A stretch of 64,000 nucleotides of DNA, taken from contig JACBFI010000004.1 in assembly GCA_013391385.1 (NCBI GenBank), forward strand, positions 124,001 through 188,000, given 5' to 3'. Of the stretch, positions 10,234-49,547 are shown piece after piece. The notes under the pieces were generated by a model. The model made no database searches. It was given only the letters and a program-made list of their open reading frames with translations, and was not told the origin of the DNA. Source of the stretch: Sediminibacterium sp. Gen4. GTDB lineage: Bacteria > Bacteroidota > Bacteroidia > Chitinophagales > Chitinophagaceae. Both the position numbers and the translations under genes were made by a program. The number at the start of each line of letters is the position of its first letter. Positions within the stretch are counted from its first letter, which is position 1.

Positions 10234-12747
10234 TCACTCCTCTGATATCGTAAAAGTTACTTTTCTTTCTACAAAGGAAGCAACTGTCTTTTGTTGATAG
10301 ATAGCAGGTCGCCAATTAGGGCCTTTTGTAAAAATTCTTGTCACTTCTTCAGCTGTACCAAAGCCAGGGTCCTCTTTTACTTTAAAGTCTTTGATGACAC
10401 CATTTGGCTGAACAATAAAAGTAACCTTTACAACATACTTACCGGGAGGTGCTCCTTTCTCAATGGGGATATTTAAATTAATATTCTTTTGCAAATATTT
10501 CTGCCATCCTATTTCTCCCCCGGGAAAATCTGCTGGGTGTTCGACCTGTGTTGGTAATGTACTTGGTTGTATATTTTGGGGTATGGCTTTTGAAGGATAA
10601 TAATTTGCTGCATCCTTTACAAGTTTATCAACTCCTTTTTCACCTGCAAATTTTCTGGCAAATTCATTCCTGTTTACAGGATCTTTTAAATCATACCCTT
10701 CAACAGTTGGAGGATCAGTATGTAAATACAATACTTTTACCACATTATGAATTGGTTTAGTATCAGAAATTGTAATCACGTAATCTGGTGATCTATTTTC
10801 TTGTATCTCAGCCCTTTTAGTCGTTATTTGCACGATACTTTTTATCTCTTCATCTGTTAACGCTTTTATTGAAACAGGATCCTTAATCACATTTATCTCT
10901 TGTATCATATCAGAATTCAATCTATTAAACTGATCATAGCTGATTCTTTTCCCATCTAGTAATAATAATAAACCTTCCTGTGATTTGTAACTATCTCGAA
11001 CCTTGACATAAGAATTACCAGATAGTTTTTGAGATTGTGGGTTTGCAGCTTTACCAATTTCTACTTTATTGGCAACGAATTCAAAAGAAGAGCTTGTATT
11101 GTTGAGCATATCCAAATCAATATCTACTACTTCTATTTCTTTGTTTTTCTCTTTTACTGCTAAATATTGCTCAACACCCTGTAAAATGGATAAAGCCATT
11201 TTACTTTGATAAGACTCATCCTTTAATAATTTCAATTCTTCGCGATTACTTACAAAGCCTGTCTCAACAAGTACAGAAGGACATTTCATGGCTTGTAAAA
11301 CATAGATACCATTGGGACGAGATTTGATTCCTAAAAAAGGATTGGCTACTGAACTAATGGTGTTTCCCAAATAATTGGCAAGCAAGTAGCTATTGTCGTA
11401 ATCATTAGATTTCTCCTTTGTAGACAAATAAAGTTCAACACCCTTAGTTGGATTTTCTTTATTGGCTTTACCCTTGATCTGGATAGGCGGAGCCGAGTTA
11501 GTATGTACCGAAATGAATAAATCGGGTGAAAATTTTTGAGCCATCTCAGCAACTTCAACAACCGTATTGAAGACATCACTTTCTCGTGTAAGGACCACAC
11601 GAATATTTGGATTTGAATTCAGCTCCTTGATTTTTTTTGCTAATGCCAGACTTAAATCCGATTCCTTTGTTCCATCATATCCTTTAGCTCCAACATCTTC
11701 TCCTCCATGACCAGGATTGATCACGATTGTGTATGTCCTATTTAAAACCAACGGCTTATAAGGGATAGCAGAGAAAACTTTGTTTGGATCACCAATCACA
11801 TGCGATCTAAAATCACCTACTACATTTTCAACAACCGATGCCACCGAAATAGGTTTATCGATCCTGGATTGTTTACTTCTAAAAGCGAACAGAACAATAA
11901 GTACTGCGAGCAGAGGTAATGCTACCAGTCTACGCAGATAACTGAATCTTGGGTTCTTATGATTTGTCAACATTTGTAACCTCCTTTTGATGGGTGAAAA
12001 AAAGAATGGATGCGTTAGTGGAAACTGTTGCTGCGGATATACCGCCGTCAACAACATCTTTGCTAATGCCGCCGTATCACCATCACGTACCGATCGCTTA
12101 TCTGCAATGAATTCGTGGATCATTTCCATCTCTTTTTTCAATAACCAAAAGAAAGGATTGAACCAGCCTGCAACCAGTATCAACTGTATCAGCATCTTAT
12201 CTACCGAGTGACGTTGCTGTACATGTGTGAGTTCATGTTGCAGGATCTGCTTACCCGATGCGCTTCGGATATCGATCTCATCATTCCAGAAAATATATCG
12301 GAAGAAGGAAAAAGGCGTCCCCTTTGCCTGTGTGATGATCAGAAATATGTTTTCGAATTGTCTGCATGGATGCTGTTTCAGCAATTGATAGATACGATAC
12401 AATCCATGTATCATCATCATCAATAAAAATCCACCTACAGATACATACAGTATAGATAATAAACTTTCCGTACTCCAGTGAAATCCCTTTGATTTCACAA
12501 CAGATTCTAACTCTGTGTTATTATCTGCTACTACTGATAAAAAACGAATGACCCGCTCATGATCACTAAAACTACTGGTCCATTGAATTTTGATCAAAGG
12601 CACGATCCATGATAAGATGGCTACACTTAATAAATAAAAGCGATTGTACTGATGAAATTTTTTATTACGCAGCACCATCCAATAATAGCCCATCATAATA
12701 GCGCTACATAATAAGACCTGCAGAAAATAATAAGCAGTACTCAGCAT
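10234..12747 (-). CDS. M56 (BlaR1-like) membrane protease fused to amidase_3 and TonB C-terminal domain
   Basis: An 837-residue, multi-domain membrane protein. Residues 1-290 hold four or five membrane helices and the M56 zinc-protease motif HELTH (171-175), as in BlaR1/MecR1 signal transducers. Residues about 332-510 are an N-acetylmuramoyl-L-alanine amidase (Amidase_3) with all expected catalytic and zinc residues: His347 in PGHGGED, Glu362, His415 in SVHTN and Glu495 in VETGF. Residues about 590-650 contain a 'DGKRIS...INVIKD' stretch like those in other Bacteroidota M56 proteins, and about 745-837 are a TonB C-terminal domain. The blaI gene ends 3 bases upstream, so the pair forms an operon. 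In BlaR1 the extracellular sensor is a penicillin-binding domain. Here a peptidoglycan amidase occupies that place, so it may sense or cut wall peptides; this is inference. Confidence 0.9.
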   Translation of the reverse strand: MLSTAYYFLQVLLCSAIMMGYYWMVLRNKKFHQYNRFYLLSVAILSWIVPLIKIQWTSSFSDHERVIRFLSVVADNNTELESVVKSKGFHWSTESLLSILYVSVGGFLLMMMIHGLYRIYQLLKQHPCRQFENIFLIITQAKGTPFSFFRYIFWNDEIDIRSASGKQILQHELTHVQQRHSVDKMLIQLILVAGWFNPFFWLLKKEMEMIHEFIADKRSVRDGDTAALAKMLLTAVYPQQQFPLTHPFFFSPIKRRLQMLTNHKNPRFSYLRRLVALPLLAVLIVLFAFRSKQSRIDKPISVASVVENVVGDFRSHVIGDPNKVFSAIPYKPLVLNRTYTIVINPGHGGEDVGAKGYDGTKESDLSLALAKKIKELNSNPNIRVVLTRESDVFNTVVEVAEMAQKFSPDLFISVHTNSAPPIQIKGKANKENPTKGVELYLSTKEKSNDYDNSYLLANYLGNTISSVANPFLGIKSRPNGIYVLQAMKCPSVLVETGFVSNREELKLLKDESYQSKMALSILQGVEQYLAVKEKNKEIEVVDIDLDMLNNTSSSFEFVANKVEIGKAANPQSQKLSGNSYVKVRDSYKSQEGLLLLLDGKRISYDQFNRLNSDMIQEINVIKDPVSIKALTDEEIKSIVQITTKRAEIQENRSPDYVITISDTKPIHNVVKVLYLHTDPPTVEGYDLKDPVNRNEFARKFAGEKGVDKLVKDAANYYPSKAIPQNIQPSTLPTQVEHPADFPGGEIGWQKYLQKNINLNIPIEKGAPPGKYVVKVTFIVQPNGVIKDFKVKEDPGFGTAEEVTRIFTKGPNWRPAIYQQKTVASFVERKVTFTISEE

Positions 12748-12750
12748 ACC

Positions 12751-13113
12751 TTATTTTTTTGCGTTTTTAATCTCTTGTAACAACATTTCCAGTTCACGAA
12801 TACTGATATCCTTTTGCTTTACCATGAAGGATACCGCTTCACTAAAAGAACCTTGAAAATACCCTTCCACCAATGTGCGTATCGTACTGGATGAATACTC
12901 CTCTTTCGATACCAATGGATAGTAACGGTGCATGCGTCCAACCGGAGTGATGCCCACAAAACCTTTTTCCACCAATATTTTCAAAATGGTAGCCACCGTA
13001 TTCGAATGCGGCTTGGGTTCGGGCTGTAGCTCCAAAATATCTTTCAGGAATGCCTCTTCCAGTTTCCAGATGCTCTGCATAATCTGCTCTTCTGCTTTTG
13101 TCAATGGTTTCAT
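12751..13113 (-). CDS. BlaI/MecI/CopY-family transcriptional repressor
   Basis: A 120-residue winged-helix repressor with the family pattern: N-terminal LTKAEEQIMQSIW, recognition helix region HSNTVATILKILVEKGFV, then a C-terminal dimerisation helix region where BlaI proteins are cut by their M56 partner. It lies directly upstream of the M56-amidase gene (3 bases), the standard blaI-blaR order. Two tandem palindromes in its promoter fit autorepression. Known relatives control beta-lactam or cell-wall stress genes; no beta-lactamase is present here. Confidence 0.93.
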   Translation of the reverse strand: MKPLTKAEEQIMQSIWKLEEAFLKDILELQPEPKPHSNTVATILKILVEKGFVGITPVGRMHRYYPLVSKEEYSSSTIRTLVEGYFQGSFSEAVSFMVKQKDISIRELEMLLQEIKNAKK

Positions 13114-13241: not shown

Positions 13242-13308
13242 GTGAATGGTGAATGGTGAGTAAAGCTGTTTTGCGACTCACCATTCACCATTCACAATTC
13301 ACCATTCA
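13242..13308. repeat. heptad-word palindrome A, upstream of lpxB
   Basis: Perfect 20-base arms (13242-13261 and 13276-13295) flank a 14-base loop. The right side is a tandem array of 7-base words, CCATTCA four times with one mismatch (13281-13308). The array ends 9 bases before the lpxB ATG, so it will fold in the lpxB leader. Confidence 0.85.
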
Positions 13309-13317
13309 CACGATCAC

Positions 13318-14499
13318 ATGAAATACTACCTCATATCCGGTGAAGCCAGTGGCGATTTACATGGCAGTAACCTTATTAAGGAGTTACAAAAAGAAGACCC
13401 GAACGCAGACATTCGTTGTTGGGGGGGTGATTTAATGTCAGCAACTGGAGCTACCCTCGTAAAGCATTACAAAGATTTAGCGTTCATGGGTTTTGTAGAA
13501 GTCATCAAAAACCTACCCACCATTTTACGCAATATCAAATTTTGCAAAGAAGACATAGCCGCATACCAGCCCGATGTTTTGGTATTGATCGATTATCCTG
13601 GTTTTAACTTAAGAATTGCTGAGTGGGCACACAAACAAGGCTATAAAGTAGTGTATTATATCTCTCCACAAGTATGGGCATGGAAAGAAAACAGGGTGAA
13701 ACAAATGAAACAATGCATTGACCTGATGCTTTGTATTCTCCCTTTTGAAAAAGATTACTATAAAACCAAATGGAATTGGGAGGTGGAATATGTTGGACAT
13801 CCTTTGGTGGAAGTGGTGGAGAGGAAGAAAGAGTTGACAGGGGGGGAAGAAAAGTTGACAGTTGATAGTATACAGTTTACAGAGAAGAATACAGATACTT
13901 TAACAACACTGTCAACTCTCAACTCTCAACTCTCAACTAATATCATCGCCCTCCTACCCGGTAGCCGAAAGCAAGAAATTGCCAAAAAACTACCGATCAT
14001 GCTGAGTGTAGCCTCGCATTTTCCTGAATACACATTCGTTGTGGCGAAAGCACCCGGACTGGAAGATGATTTTTACACTCCCTTCTTGAGTACAGCTACC
14101 AACGTAACCAGCGTTCGCAACCAAACCTATGATCTGCTGATGAAAGCGCATGCAGCACTCGTAACCAGTGGAACTGCTACGCTTGAAACAGCTTTGTTTG
14201 CTGTTCCGGAGGTAGTTTGTTATAAAGGAAATAGTATCAGTTATCAAATTGCAAAGAGACTGATCCATATCAAATACATCTCTCTGGTGAATCTCATCAT
14301 GGATAAGCCCATCGTGAAAGAATTGATACAAGATGAACTTACCACCGAAAATCTGATTAGAGAATTAAAACTAATTACACATGATACTTATCATCGACAA
14401 AAAATGATCGATGATTATTCGGCATTAAGGGAGCTTTTATCTAAGGGTGGTAATGCTTCAACACAAGCTGCAAAACAAATCATCAAACTAATATCCTGA
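13318..14499 (+). CDS. lpxB: lipid-A-disaccharide synthase LpxB, with in-frame repeat insertion
   Basis: Glycosyltransferase of family GT19 that joins UDP-2,3-diacylglucosamine and lipid X in lipid A synthesis, at the inner face of the cytoplasmic membrane. It has 393 residues. The family N-terminus ISGEASGDLHG, the YYISPQVWAWKENR segment and the nucleotide-binding LLPGSRKQEI region are intact. Between GHPLVEV and IIALLPGSR lies a polar, Thr/Ser-rich stretch (residues 172-208) encoded by a palindromic repeat that replaces the usual short linker. The reading frame is kept. The gene ends stop-to-stop against the convergent DUF922 gene. Confidence 0.95.
   Translation: MKYYLISGEASGDLHGSNLIKELQKEDPNADIRCWGGDLMSATGATLVKHYKDLAFMGFVEVIKNLPTILRNIKFCKEDIAAYQPDVLVLIDYPGFNLRIAEWAHKQGYKVVYYISPQVWAWKENRVKQMKQCIDLMLCILPFEKDYYKTKWNWEVEYVGHPLVEVVERKKELTGGEEKLTVDSIQFTEKNTDTLTTLSTLNSQLSTNIIALLPGSRKQEIAKKLPIMLSVASHFPEYTFVVAKAPGLEDDFYTPFLSTATNVTSVRNQTYDLLMKAHAALVTSGTATLETALFAVPEVVCYKGNSISYQIAKRLIHIKYISLVNLIMDKPIVKELIQDELTTENLIRELKLITHDTYHRQKMIDDYSALRELLSKGGNASTQAAKQIIKLIS
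13831..13941. repeat. heptad-word palindrome B, in frame inside lpxB
   Basis: The left arm contains GTTGACA, GTTGATA, GTATACA and GTTTACA in tandem (13854-13881). The right arm contains GTCAACT followed by three CTCAACT (13911-13938), the reverse complement of the left word. The affected segment is 111 bases, 37 codons, so the frame is preserved. The same words occur at the end of metX (17399-17426). Confidence 0.8.
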
Positions 14500-17398: not shown

Positions 17399-17426
17399 CT
17401 ATCAACTATACATTGTCAACTGTCAA
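17399..17426. repeat. heptad-word half-element C at the metX 3' end
   Basis: Four tandem 7-base words, CTATCAA, CTATACA, TTGTCAA and CTGTCAA. Only one orientation is present, so it does not form a palindrome alone. On the minus strand it encodes the last residues and TAG of metX. The words match the element inside lpxB. Confidence 0.65.
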
Positions 17427-18443
17427 CCAGCCACTCAAATGATGACTGATTTGTGCAGTCTCAATAATAAATCCATCATGTCCATAAGTAGAATCGATTT
17501 CAACTAGAGTAGCATTGGGCATATATTCTTTCATAAATCGTTGTTCATCTAACGGACAAAGGATATCGCTTCTGATACCTATGATCAGTACAGGTTGTTG
17601 GATGCTGTTCAGCGCTTTGATCAAGTCTCCACCTCTTCCTCTACCCAAATGATGGGTATCCATGGATTTTGTGAGCAACCAATACGAATAGGCATTGAAT
17701 CGTTTCACCAGTTTCTCGCCTTGGTAGTTGATATAAGACGAAGCCCTGAAATCGTCGATCTTCTCGGGATCAGGATCTGTTTGTGCTTGCTGAAAAATTC
17801 CATAATTACGATAAGTAAGCATCCCAATAGCGCGAGCTGCTTTTAATCCGGCAGCACCGGCTTTCTCATTTTTATCTTTCCAAGTATGATCAGCTTCAAT
17901 AGCAAGTCGTTGCGCTGTATGTATCGCAACACCCCATGCACTCTCAGAAGGTGATGTGGCTATAAGAAATATTTTCTGAATACGTTTTTGTTCCATCATC
18001 GCCCATTCCAATACCTGATACCCACCCATGCTTCCACCCATCAATAAAAATATCTGTTCAATTTGTAAGTATTCACGTAACAGAATATGAGCACTTACCA
18101 TGTCGCGAATGGTGACCGAGGGAAAATCGCTGAAGTAAGGGTCCTGAGTTTTTGGATTCACACTTAAAGGACCGGTAGTACCATAACAGGAGCCAAGGAT
18201 GTTGGCACAAACAATAAAATATTTTTCAGGGTCAATCAAACAATCTTCACCTACCAAACCCTTCCACCAATCTGCACAATCAGCACTAGCTGTTAAAGCA
18301 TGACAAACCCATACTACTTTGGTATCGGCACCTTTCCAAACACCATAAGTGTGATAAGCAATAGTGATTTCAGGCAATACCGTCCCGCTCTCTAAAACAA
18401 ACGGCTGTTTGCTTTTAAAATACTGTAGTTGATTATTCCGCAT
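17406..18443 (-). CDS. metX: homoserine O-acetyltransferase MetX
   Basis: Alpha/beta-hydrolase acyltransferase that makes O-acetyl-L-homoserine from acetyl-CoA and homoserine, the first committed step of methionine synthesis. It has 345 residues, within the family range. The nucleophile Ser138 is in GGSMGGYQ, and the acid Asp and His are in GIRSDILCP and YGHDGF. NILGSCYGTTGP is a MetX hallmark. It is divergent from metZ across about 95 bases, so the two methionine genes may share control. The last residues (LTVDNV) and the stop are encoded by heptad repeat words. Confidence 0.95.
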   Translation of the reverse strand: MRNNQLQYFKSKQPFVLESGTVLPEITIAYHTYGVWKGADTKVVWVCHALTASADCADWWKGLVGEDCLIDPEKYFIVCANILGSCYGTTGPLSVNPKTQDPYFSDFPSVTIRDMVSAHILLREYLQIEQIFLLMGGSMGGYQVLEWAMMEQKRIQKIFLIATSPSESAWGVAIHTAQRLAIEADHTWKDKNEKAGAAGLKAARAIGMLTYRNYGIFQQAQTDPDPEKIDDFRASSYINYQGEKLVKRFNAYSYWLLTKSMDTHHLGRGRGGDLIKALNSIQQPVLIIGIRSDILCPLDEQRFMKEYMPNATLVEIDSTYGHDGFIIETAQISHHLSGWLTVDNV

Positions 18444-31080: not shown

Positions 31081-31156
31081 AAAGTCAAAATTCAAAAGTC
31101 AAAAAGATACTCATCCTTCACTTTTGAATTTTAACTTTTGAATTTTGAATTTTATC
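31081..31156. repeat. heptad-word palindrome E, up to the fmt start
   Basis: The left arm has AAAGTCA, AAATTCA, AAAGTCA (31081-31101). The right arm has TTTTGAA, TTTTAAC, TTTTGAA, TTTTGAA, TTTTATC in exact 7-base register (31122-31156). It starts 8 bases after the muramidase stop and ends 2 bases before the fmt ATG, so it forms the whole fmt leader. Confidence 0.85.
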
Positions 31157-37028: not shown

Positions 37029-37135
37029 TGAGTCTGTAGTGAATAGTCAGTAGTGAATAGTGAGTGGTATAGACAATCAAAAAACTACTCACTACTCTCT
37101 ACTAACTATTCACTACTCACCACTCGCTCATTCAC
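37029..37135. repeat. heptad-word palindrome F across the pntA1 3' end
   Basis: The left arm has GTGAATA, GTCAGTA, GTGAATA, GTGAGTG (37039-37066). The right arm has TACTCAC, TACTCTC, TACTAAC, TATTCAC, TACTCAC, CACTCGC (37086-37127). The pntA1 TAG (37106-37108) and its last residues lie in the right arm. The first 18 bases of the left arm are identical to those of the element at 23632. Confidence 0.87.
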
Positions 37136-49480: not shown

Positions 49481-49547
49481 CATATGGGTTATAGCTTATA
49501 GTGTATTGCTATAAACTATAAGCTATAACCCATATGCCACTAAGCCA
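49471..49547. repeat. heptad-word palindrome G at the HAD gene 3' end
   Basis: The left arm has GCTTATA, GCATATG, GGTTATA, GCTTATA (49473-49500). The right arm has TATAAAC, TATAAGC, TATAACC, CATATGC (49510-49537). Perfect 23-base pairing joins 49480-49502 and 49515-49537 with a 12-base loop, and TGGCTTA/TAAGCCA close the base. The TAG of the HAD gene (49478-49480) lies in the left arm. Confidence 0.9.

What the first reader, a model, noticed from the sequence alone, without database searches (positions are those of the whole stretch)
13831..13941. Heptad palindrome inserted in frame inside lpxB
Seen: 37 codons between GHPLVEV and IIALLPGSR are made of GTTGACA-type words and their complement. 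LpxB is essential in most Gram-negative bacteria, and the frame is kept, so the element is tolerated in a linker. It shows that these elements move or grow inside genes and can create protein sequence. The same words stand at the metX end, 3.5 kb away.
Basis: seen in the sequence. Interest (0 to 1): 0.75.

Follow-up and report, generated by a model that had tools for sequence, protein, structure and literature searches.

The report
Genome-specific seven-base palindromes inside essential genes
A palindrome built of seven-base repeats sits inside lpxB, a gene for making lipid A, and some related bacteria carry the same kind of palindrome at the same spot but spelled with other seven-base words, so a spreading repeat seems to keep rewriting a flexible stretch of a core protein.

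Summary
The lpxB linker (13831-13941) is built largely of 7-nt words (78 of 111 bases; shuffles mean 15, maximum 47), an imperfect palindrome, about 24 codons over the norm. It is no one-off insert. Of 121 relative loci, 20 carry a 7-nt array in this linker (0-1 at control periods), in words that differ between lineages, with at least 17 changes on a tree. Words are genome dialects: this genome's word occurs 34 times there, 0 times in 18 relatives. Two ValS linkers, the lpxB 5' spacer and the metX 3' end recur too. Palindromes are polar, G-rich arm first: 55 of 60, 1 reversed. In two close pairs both arms changed together; same-genome copies share arms far more than loops. Best reading: heptad palindromes evolve in concert by slippage, arm-to-arm copying and word spread; tolerant linkers are rewritten in frame. 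Heptameric repeats and in-frame palindromes are each known; this combination was not seen in the listings of nine searches. Enzyme, polarity and the number seven stay unexplained.

The parts
13318..14499 (+). lpxB, lipid-A-disaccharide synthase, 393 aa, host gene of the element
   Evidence: Pfam LpxB E 7.5e-89; TIGR00215 258.9 bits, cut-off 190.25; E. coli LpxB structures 5w8s/5w8n match on both sides of the linker
13831..13840 (+). isolated first G-type word (GAGTTGACAG), followed by a G/A-rich stretch
   Evidence: sequence; word coverage map
13853..13882 (+). 5' (G-type) arm: TTGACAG TTGATAG TATACAG TTTACAG; the third word lacks the TGA that would be an in-frame stop
   Evidence: sequence, codon walk, hairpin scan
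13883..13907 (+). loop between the arms
   Evidence: sequence; fold
13908..13939 (+). 3' (C-type) arm: CTGTCAA then tandem CTCTCAA-type words, 4.4 units of period 7
13242..13309 (.). second heptad palindrome (GTGAATG / CATTCAC words) ending 8 bases before the lpxB start; recurrent site in relatives
   Evidence: 17 of 115 lpxB 5' spacers, the window's included, have a lag-7 score >=16
17402..17429 (.). heptad words (TATCAAC..TGTCAACTGTCAAC) over the 3' end of metX; they supply the last MetX residues and its stop
   Evidence: lag-7 score 14, under the cut of 15 used for relatives; the orthologous site carries heptad palindromes with other words in G042, G050 and L132/L015
23632..23702 (.). same kind: heptad palindrome (GTAGTGA words), 9 bases after a predicted gene 3' end
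31085..31148 (.). same kind: heptad palindrome (AAAAGTC / AAAATTC words), 11 bases after a predicted gene 3' end
37037..37117 (.). same kind: heptad palindrome (GTAGTGA words) over a predicted gene 3' end
49481..49536 (.). same kind: heptad palindrome (TTATAGC / GCTATAA words) between convergent predicted genes

Best explanation
The segment is one of roughly two hundred (extrapolated from 28 in 464 kb) heptad palindromes in this genome: a 5' arm of tandem 7-nt words, a short local loop, and a 3' arm of the complementary words. They are probably not inserted as units. Hairpin-forming sites persist at tolerated positions, mostly gene 3' ends and a few flexible protein linkers. Their arms lengthen and shorten in 7-nt steps (slippage), each arm is copied from the other (template switching), and favoured words spread between loci of one genome (ectopic copying or conversion), so each genome acquires its own dialect. 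In lpxB the site is the linker between the two domains; selection keeps only states that stay in frame and free of stops, so the linker is rewritten again and again in different lineages. Shown: heptad anatomy, recurrence at the same sites, genome-specific words, paired change of both arms in two close pairs, loops far less alike than arms, low model confidence of the linker. Inferred: slippage, template switching and ectopic copying as the molecular steps; tolerance without loss of LpxB function; no need for a transposase.
For: 20 of 121 lpxB loci have an array (lag-7 score >=16) in the linker, 0-1 at eight other lags; on the tree 21 of 122 rows with arrays need at least 17 changes. Dialects: GTTGACAGTTGAYAG 34 in the window genome, 0 in 18 others; GGTTTGTGGTTTGTR 20 in G075, 5 in G062, 0 in 17; GGAGTTRGGAGTYDG 39 in G058, 79 in G065, 0 in 17. 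The exact 15-mers stand in the lpxB linkers of G000, G058 and G065; the G075 linker has the same word type but not that exact 15-mer. Hairpins of period 7: 28 in 464 kb of the window genome, 0-1 at other lags; 0 in 200 kb each of G010 and G017. L132 against L015: same loop, each arm differs by 14 bp; L157 against L161: matched GTC/GAC to GTG/CAC change. Eight same-word elements: arm similarity 0.885, loop similarity 0.404. Two ValS linkers recur. Only linker residues 178-205 have pLDDT<50.
Against: The steps were not observed; no strain pair with and without an element was at hand. The 55:1 polarity and the period of exactly 7 follow from none of the proposed steps. The eight elements were chosen for sharing a word, so high arm similarity is partly built in, and two of the ten listed (the window's own and L113) were left out; loops are a little more alike than all 300 shuffles (0.404 against a maximum of 0.394), so part of the loop may travel. 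At ValS site 2 four genomes share a word (AAATTCA type), which may be inheritance. One locus with a low lag-7 score (L168) has the longest linker, 61 aa, so length alone is not the element's doing. Y1 transposase genes are commoner in heptad-positive genomes.
Confidence: 0.6

Rival explanations
1. Non-autonomous mobile palindromes (MITE- or REP-like) moved as units by a transposase, for instance a RAYT/Y1 enzyme, that sometimes land in frame in tolerant linkers.
For: Y1_Tnp at E<=1e-3 in 10 of 13 heptad-positive and 3 of 48 heptad-negative genomes of the genus (Fisher 8e-7). Same-word families of many copies within a genome. One Y1 gene (L095) has a heptad palindrome 36 bases away, in a genome counted as negative by the pattern.
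Against: G023, G042 (100% complete) and G054 are heptad-positive without a Y1 match; among genomes of 2.7 Mb or more the association falls to 8 of 12 against 2 of 8 for strong hits (P 0.17; with weak hits 10 of 12 against 2 of 8, P 0.02). Of 28 Y1 places 20 were fetched; 16 of these 20, the window genome's only one included, have no heptad array within about 2.5 kb or up to the contig end. Loops are not shared like arms. Several unrelated words per genome. The same orthologous sites are used with different words.
Confidence: 0.12
2. Functional RNA or DNA hairpins (terminators or 3'-end stabilisers at gene ends, a translational pause in lpxB) kept by selection for structure, with freely drifting sequence; the heptads are a by-product.
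For: 22 of 26 classifiable palindromes lie within 20 bases of a predicted gene 3' end, only 2 between divergent genes and 1 inside a gene. Orthologous junctions keep a palindrome while words change. Compensatory change L157/L161.
Against: 48 of 61 genomes of the genus lack TCA-type arrays, and G010 and G017 show no heptad hairpin in 200 kb each. Several array-bearing lpxB linkers have one arm only, and most linkers no array. A terminator inside lpxB or 8 bases before its start should be harmful (inference). Drift does not readily give genome-specific words at dozens of loci.
Confidence: 0.12
3. Purely local slippage and palindrome correction at each site, without any exchange between loci; shared words reflect common starting sequence or mutational bias.
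For: 7-bp-step changes in both arms of one element in close relatives; heptameric simple repeats are over-represented in many bacteria (PMC4692102, passages).
Against: 34 exact matches of a 15-mer at many loci of one genome and none in 18 relatives is hard to get locally; a variant word (GTTGTTA) shared at similar places in both arms of three elements, L007, L117 and L118.
Confidence: 0.12
4. Sequencing or assembly artefact of short-read assembly in repeats.
For: Some G058 contigs end in long arrays, so array lengths may be wrong.
Against: Arrays lie inside contigs, keep reading frames, and occur in named isolate genomes such as Sediminibacterium magnilacihabitans DSM 22423 (L132), Niastella yeongjuensis DSM 17621 (L155) and Pinibacter (L157, L161).
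Confidence: 0.01

Closest known systems
TAACTGA heptamer direct repeats of Beggiatoaceae, Cyanobacteria and five Bacteroidetes (MacGregor 2015, PMC4679880; abstract and sections 9, 10 and 15 read)
   Same: 7-nt tandem words, mostly intergenic, some within ORFs; one orientation has stops in all frames; indels mostly in 7-nt steps between close strains; Bacteroidetes with other heptamers alongside.
   Different: One word, direct repeats with a single indirect repeat in the main genome, mostly just before start codons; here palindromic, polar, many words in genome-specific dialects, mostly at gene 3' ends, and recurrent in the same protein linkers.
GGGNATC G-rich heptamer repeats of Xanthomonas and Nostoc (PMC4692102; passages read)
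   Same: Period 7, spread over the genome, variable copy number, favoured near stop codons and between aligned ORFs, rare between divergent ORFs and in coding regions.
   Different: One G-quadruplex-forming word type rather than many words in two complementary arms.
Rickettsia palindromic elements, RPE (passages in the review PMC10969869 and in PMC6649704; original papers not read)
   Same: Palindromic DNA in frame inside many unrelated protein genes, tolerated by the proteins.
   Different: RPEs are about 150 bp elements of ten families, each with a conserved peptide; here no fixed sequence, 7-nt words, different words at one site.
Coding palindromes of Nematomorpha mitochondrial genes (PMC6649704; passages read)
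   Same: Inverted repeats in coding genes, gained and lost repeatedly, arms kept identical; template switching discussed as one possible mechanism.
   Different: Mitochondrial; no heptad words and no shared dialect between loci in the passages read.
REP elements and RAYT transposases (PMC3733652; abstract passages and other passages read)
   Same: Short hairpins, many copies, species-specific families, some within genes.
   Different: REPs carry GTAG or CGTC tags at one end; heptad arrays were not mentioned in the passages read; RAYT genes are flanked by REPs or TIRs.

Membership tests
Heptameric tandem repeats (TAACTGA / GGGNATC kind) | tandem words of period 7, in excess over other periods | tested here: met
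   28 hairpins at lag 7 against 0-1 at lags 5, 6, 8, 9, 10 in 464 kb; 23 arrays at lag 7 against 0-3 at lags 5, 6 and 8-13; lag 14, a multiple of 7, gave 21
Heptameric tandem repeats (TAACTGA / GGGNATC kind) | one conserved word | tested here: not met
   many words per genome and genome-specific words
Rickettsia palindromic elements | in-frame palindrome in protein-coding genes | tested here: met
   lpxB (imperfect palindrome). In-frame heptad arrays also in ValS (two sites) and a 335-aa ORF in L125; whether those three are palindromic was not tested
Rickettsia palindromic elements | fixed family sequence of about 150 bp recurring at unrelated sites | tested here: not met
   own-genome matches to the element are 71-91% over about 30-100 bases, arms mainly; loops far less alike than arms
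REP / RAYT system | Y1 (RAYT) gene present in genomes with the repeat | tested here: not met
   10 of 13 heptad-positive genomes have a match; G023 (70% complete), G042 (100%) and G054 (93%) have none
REP / RAYT system | RAYT gene flanked by the repeats | tested here: not met
   4 of 20 fetched Y1 loci (of 28 places) have an array within about 2.5 kb; the window genome's has none
MITE | constant terminal inverted repeats and target-site duplication | tested here: inconclusive
   no constant termini seen by eye between word families; no empty-site strain pair to test duplication
Template-switch (quasipalindrome) corrected inverted repeats | arms change in concert between close relatives | tested here: met
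   L132/L015 14 bp in each arm; L157/L161 matched substitution; two pairs only, and other pairs in that call (L155, L158 and L160 against relatives) were not spanned or too diverged, or showed unequal change
Template-switch (quasipalindrome) corrected inverted repeats | dependence on replication or exonuclease genotype | not testable with these tools
   needs mutants

The most novel reading that the evidence does not exclude
A cellular activity writes genome-specific heptads onto DNA 3' ends, telomerase-like. If both ends of a break were each extended at the 3' strand with the same G-type word and then joined, the product would be a G-word arm, a unique filler loop and a complementary C-word arm, always in that polarity, with words specific to the genome. 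Permissive protein linkers would then be among the scars that survive. This would explain the 55:1 polarity, the dialects, the unlike loops and the patchy distribution, which slippage and template switching do not explain together.
Probability: 0.07. Interest if true: 0.95.

Novelty: new variant of a known kind. Interest (0 to 1): 0.72.

Why it matters
Heptameric repeats have been noted in bacteria without a mechanism. Here they show rules that can be tested: period 7, fixed polarity, arms that change together, words that are private to a genome, and conserved sites whose words turn over. Because some sites lie in linkers of core enzymes (LpxB, ValS), the same process is a repeated natural experiment in making new protein sequence, with many independent outcomes to compare. 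If the words spread between loci, this is concerted evolution of very short dispersed sequence in bacteria, and finding what copies them would be new biology.

Tried and rejected
Simple reading as a lone insertion: rejected by the recurrence with other words. RAYT/Y1 transposition: tested by presence, by flanks and with size matching; weakened, not excluded. End joining by Ku: Ku in 1 of 61 genomes, so not a general cause. Loss of the palindrome nuclease SbcD: SbcD above cut-off in 3 of 61 genomes, 1 of 13 heptad-positive and 2 of 48 heptad-negative; it does not explain the patchiness.

Limits of the tests. The TCA-type pattern used for the genus survey sees only part of the words: G051 scored zero but has a CCATCGC palindrome, and G010 scored zero but has a short GTTGTTA palindrome at metX (L015); 'heptad-negative' therefore means negative for that pattern. 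The reversed-pattern controls were also high in heptad-rich genomes, because arrays match them too, so they are no background estimate there. The window's own metX end scored 14, under the cut of 15 used for 29 metX ends (5 of 29 reach it, one of them, L023, probably not a true array). At the lpxB 5' spacer lag 8 gave 7 of 115 against 17 at lag 7. The dialect test on sampled hairpins gave 59 of 422 pairs within and 32 of 524 between genomes sharing a 12-mer, 5 of 2000 permutations as high. The 40-kb G042 sample had no hairpin by the strict scan although the genome is rich in TCA-type arrays. In the two-genome comparison only one of two G050 hairpins lay in aligned sequence. lpxB of G054 was cut by a contig end and not used; of 38 genomes with a match, 30 loci were handed out. 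The rivals are not mutually exclusive, so their odds need not sum to one. One search stopped with a missing file and with an error; both questions were redone. Literature: nine searches; no report of genome-specific heptad palindromes was seen in the rows listed; one search returned nothing because its terms were too narrow, and the library lacks most subscription papers.

Full report
What is there. lpxB (13318-14499 +, 393 aa) is a sound LpxB by Pfam, NCBIfam and solved relatives. Between YVGHPLVEV and LLPGSR lies a stretch made largely of 7-nt words: an isolated GAGTTGACAG, a G/A-rich stretch, a 5' arm TTGACAG TTGATAG TATACAG TTTACAG (13853-13882), a loop, and a 3' arm of CTGTCAA/CTCTCAA words (13908-13939). 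Word coverage is 78 of 111 bases against a shuffle mean of 15 and maximum of 47. The palindrome is imperfect but folds better than all 200 shuffles. Three TGA words in a row must put a stop in every frame; in the window the third word lacks its TGA and the frame stays open. In another locus (L131) the third word is GTCAATG where GTGAATG would stop (sequence).

Where it sits in the protein. E. coli LpxB (5w8s) aligns up to residue 168 of the query and again from 207; the segment between is 17 residues in E. coli and 38 here. In an AlphaFold2 model from 29 sequences (mean pLDDT 86.3) the only stretch under 50 is residues 178-205. It lies between the two halves of the protein and is probably flexible.

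It recurs at the same place with other words. The segment is 28-61 aa long. A lag-7 score of at least 16 of 21 was reached in 20 of 121, against 0 or 1 of 121 at lags 5, 6 and 8-13. Words include GGAGTTG (L069), GTTTGTG (L070), TCACGTC (L071), CTCCTAA with TCACCAT (L072), GTCAAAA (L074), GTCAGAC (L079), GTCGGGA (L139), AAGGAAC (L175) and AACCTTA (L136). Arrays elsewhere in the same open frames occurred in 7 of 121, and in each the array lies in the part of the stop-to-stop frame before the lpxB start, not in the domains. On an LpxB tree built without the linker, 21 of 122 rows with arrays need at least 17 changes (FastTree). Loci 84% identical (L136, L179) share a word; loci 82% identical (L136, L145) do not.

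Other sites do the same. ValS was compared in 18 of 19 genomes searched (G021's match was not used, being only 29% identical). At site 1 arrays stand in G000, G048, G062, G065 and G075; at site 2 in G000, G042, G048, G050 (two copies) and G054; none in G003, G010, G011, G013, G017, G023, G046, G052, G058 or G061 (G023 and G046 were partial). At site 1 words differ, except that G065 and G062 share a left arm and G048 and G062 share TCACCAC-type words; at site 2 the window genome differs and the other four share an AAATTCA-type word. At site 2 the length hardly changes, so heptads can replace sequence. The lpxB 5' spacer has lag-7 arrays in 17 of 115 (0, 0, 7, 1, 1 at lags 5, 6, 8, 9, 10) and the metX 3' end in 5 of 29 (0 at those lags). 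The junction between metX and the convergent gene before it (acylase-like; name recalled) holds three different words in the window genome, G042 and G050.

Anatomy. In 464 kb of the window genome there are 28 heptad palindromes at lag 7 and 0-1 at other lags; none in 200 kb each of G010 and G017. With 16 more in 80 lpxB loci and 16 in samples of G062, G058 and G050, 55 of 60 have a 5' arm with G>C and a 3' arm with C>G, and 1 the reverse (binomial 1.6e-15; elements are not fully independent). A palindrome reads alike on both strands, so this is a property of the element, not of orientation. Of 26 classifiable palindromes in the window genome (2 more lay at stretch ends), 22 lie within 20 bases of a predicted gene 3' end, 2 lie between divergent genes, 1 is in a gene and 1 is farther off (simple ORF-based gene calls).

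Dialects. The window's lpxB word (GTTGACAGTTGAYAG) occurs 34 times in its own genome and in none of 18 others, 12 of them heptad-positive. GGTTTGTGGTTTGTR, the word type of the G075 linker, occurs 20 times there, 5 in G062, 0 in 17; the exact 15-mer is not itself in the G075 linker. That of G058 and G065 occurs 39 and 79 times, 0 in 17; 26 of the 39 in G058 are overlapping matches in two contig-end arrays. TCA-type arrays occur in 13 of 61 genomes of the genus and are absent from 48; 12 of 20 genomes of 2.7 Mb or more have them, 1 of 41 smaller ones.

How it changes. S. magnilacihabitans (L132) and G010 (L015), 93% identical in lpxB, share the loop of the metX-end palindrome with few substitutions, while each arm differs by 14 bp, two words. 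Pinibacter L157 and L161 (91%) show GTC..GAC against GTG..CAC at paired positions. Other pairs in that call were less telling: some elements were not spanned, L155 and L158 were too diverged to read, and L160/L164 changed mainly in one arm. So where it can be read, loops descend normally and arms change together. Yet in eight of ten listed GTTGACA elements of the window genome, arm similarity is 0.885 and loop similarity 0.404 (shuffled loops 0.36, maximum 0.394); the set was chosen by its word, so the arm figure is partly built in. If loops descend normally but are unlike between copies, the arms spread without the loop. This is the main ground for ectopic copying of words rather than transposition of units; it is an inference.

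What could drive it. Y1 transposase: associated (10 of 13 against 3 of 48) but missing in heptad-positive G023, G042 and G054, mostly not flanked by heptads, and weak after size matching. Ku: 1 of 61. SbcD above cut-off: 3 of 61. No responsible gene was found.

Comparison with the known. Heptameric repeats are described in Bacteroidetes, Cyanobacteria, Beggiatoaceae and Xanthomonas (PMC4679880, PMC4692102), in-frame palindromes in Rickettsia (through PMC10969869 and PMC6649704), and arm homogenisation, with template switching as the mechanism or a candidate, in yeast genes and nematomorph mitochondria (PMC8604942, PMC6649704; passages, the former's abstract included). The present elements share traits with each but fail a defining feature of heptamer repeats (one word), RPEs (fixed family sequence) and REPs (RAYT gene and flanks). 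The genus name Sediminibacterium is inferred from the nearest named LpxB loci, not given for the window by any tool. That LpxB and ValS are essential is general knowledge, not tested here.

Noticed in passing
window 10234-12747 (-) and 12751-13113 (-): A BlaR1-like membrane peptidase with an amidase-like motif (INPGHGG) in its middle, next to a BlaI-like repressor, sits between the surE-like gene and lpxB; names are recalled from sequence motifs, not searched.
   Followed up: no
L095 2837-2908: A CCATCGC heptad palindrome 36 bases from a Y1 transposase gene in G051, a genome that scored zero for TCA-type words.
   Followed up: partly
L212 12234-12325 and L215 334-431: Two G050 elements look nested: outer arms with GATAAAA/GTGAAGA words and a related inner hairpin.
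   Followed up: no
G058:C118:2-100, G058:C121:1-99, G058:C82:6-99, G058:C100:6-99: Contigs begin in long perfect heptad arrays, so assemblies seem to break at them and long arrays are probably under-counted.
   Followed up: no
61 genomes of the genus: A clear SbcD (above cut-off) is present in only 3 of 61 genomes, although palindromes are common in some.
   Followed up: partly
L164: A contig titled Streptomyces griseus MAG carries an lpxB 89% identical to the Chitinophagaceae locus L160; the title is probably wrong.
   Followed up: no
G050:C111 and G050:C23 (L272, L277): Two near-complete valS copies in one genome, differing in the heptad stretch; contamination, strain mixture or duplication.
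   Followed up: no
L062 993-1026 and 1498-1526; L125 11870-11903: Further in-gene heptad arrays of the window genome: two in valS and one in a 335-aa ORF with CATGGAC words.
   Followed up: partly
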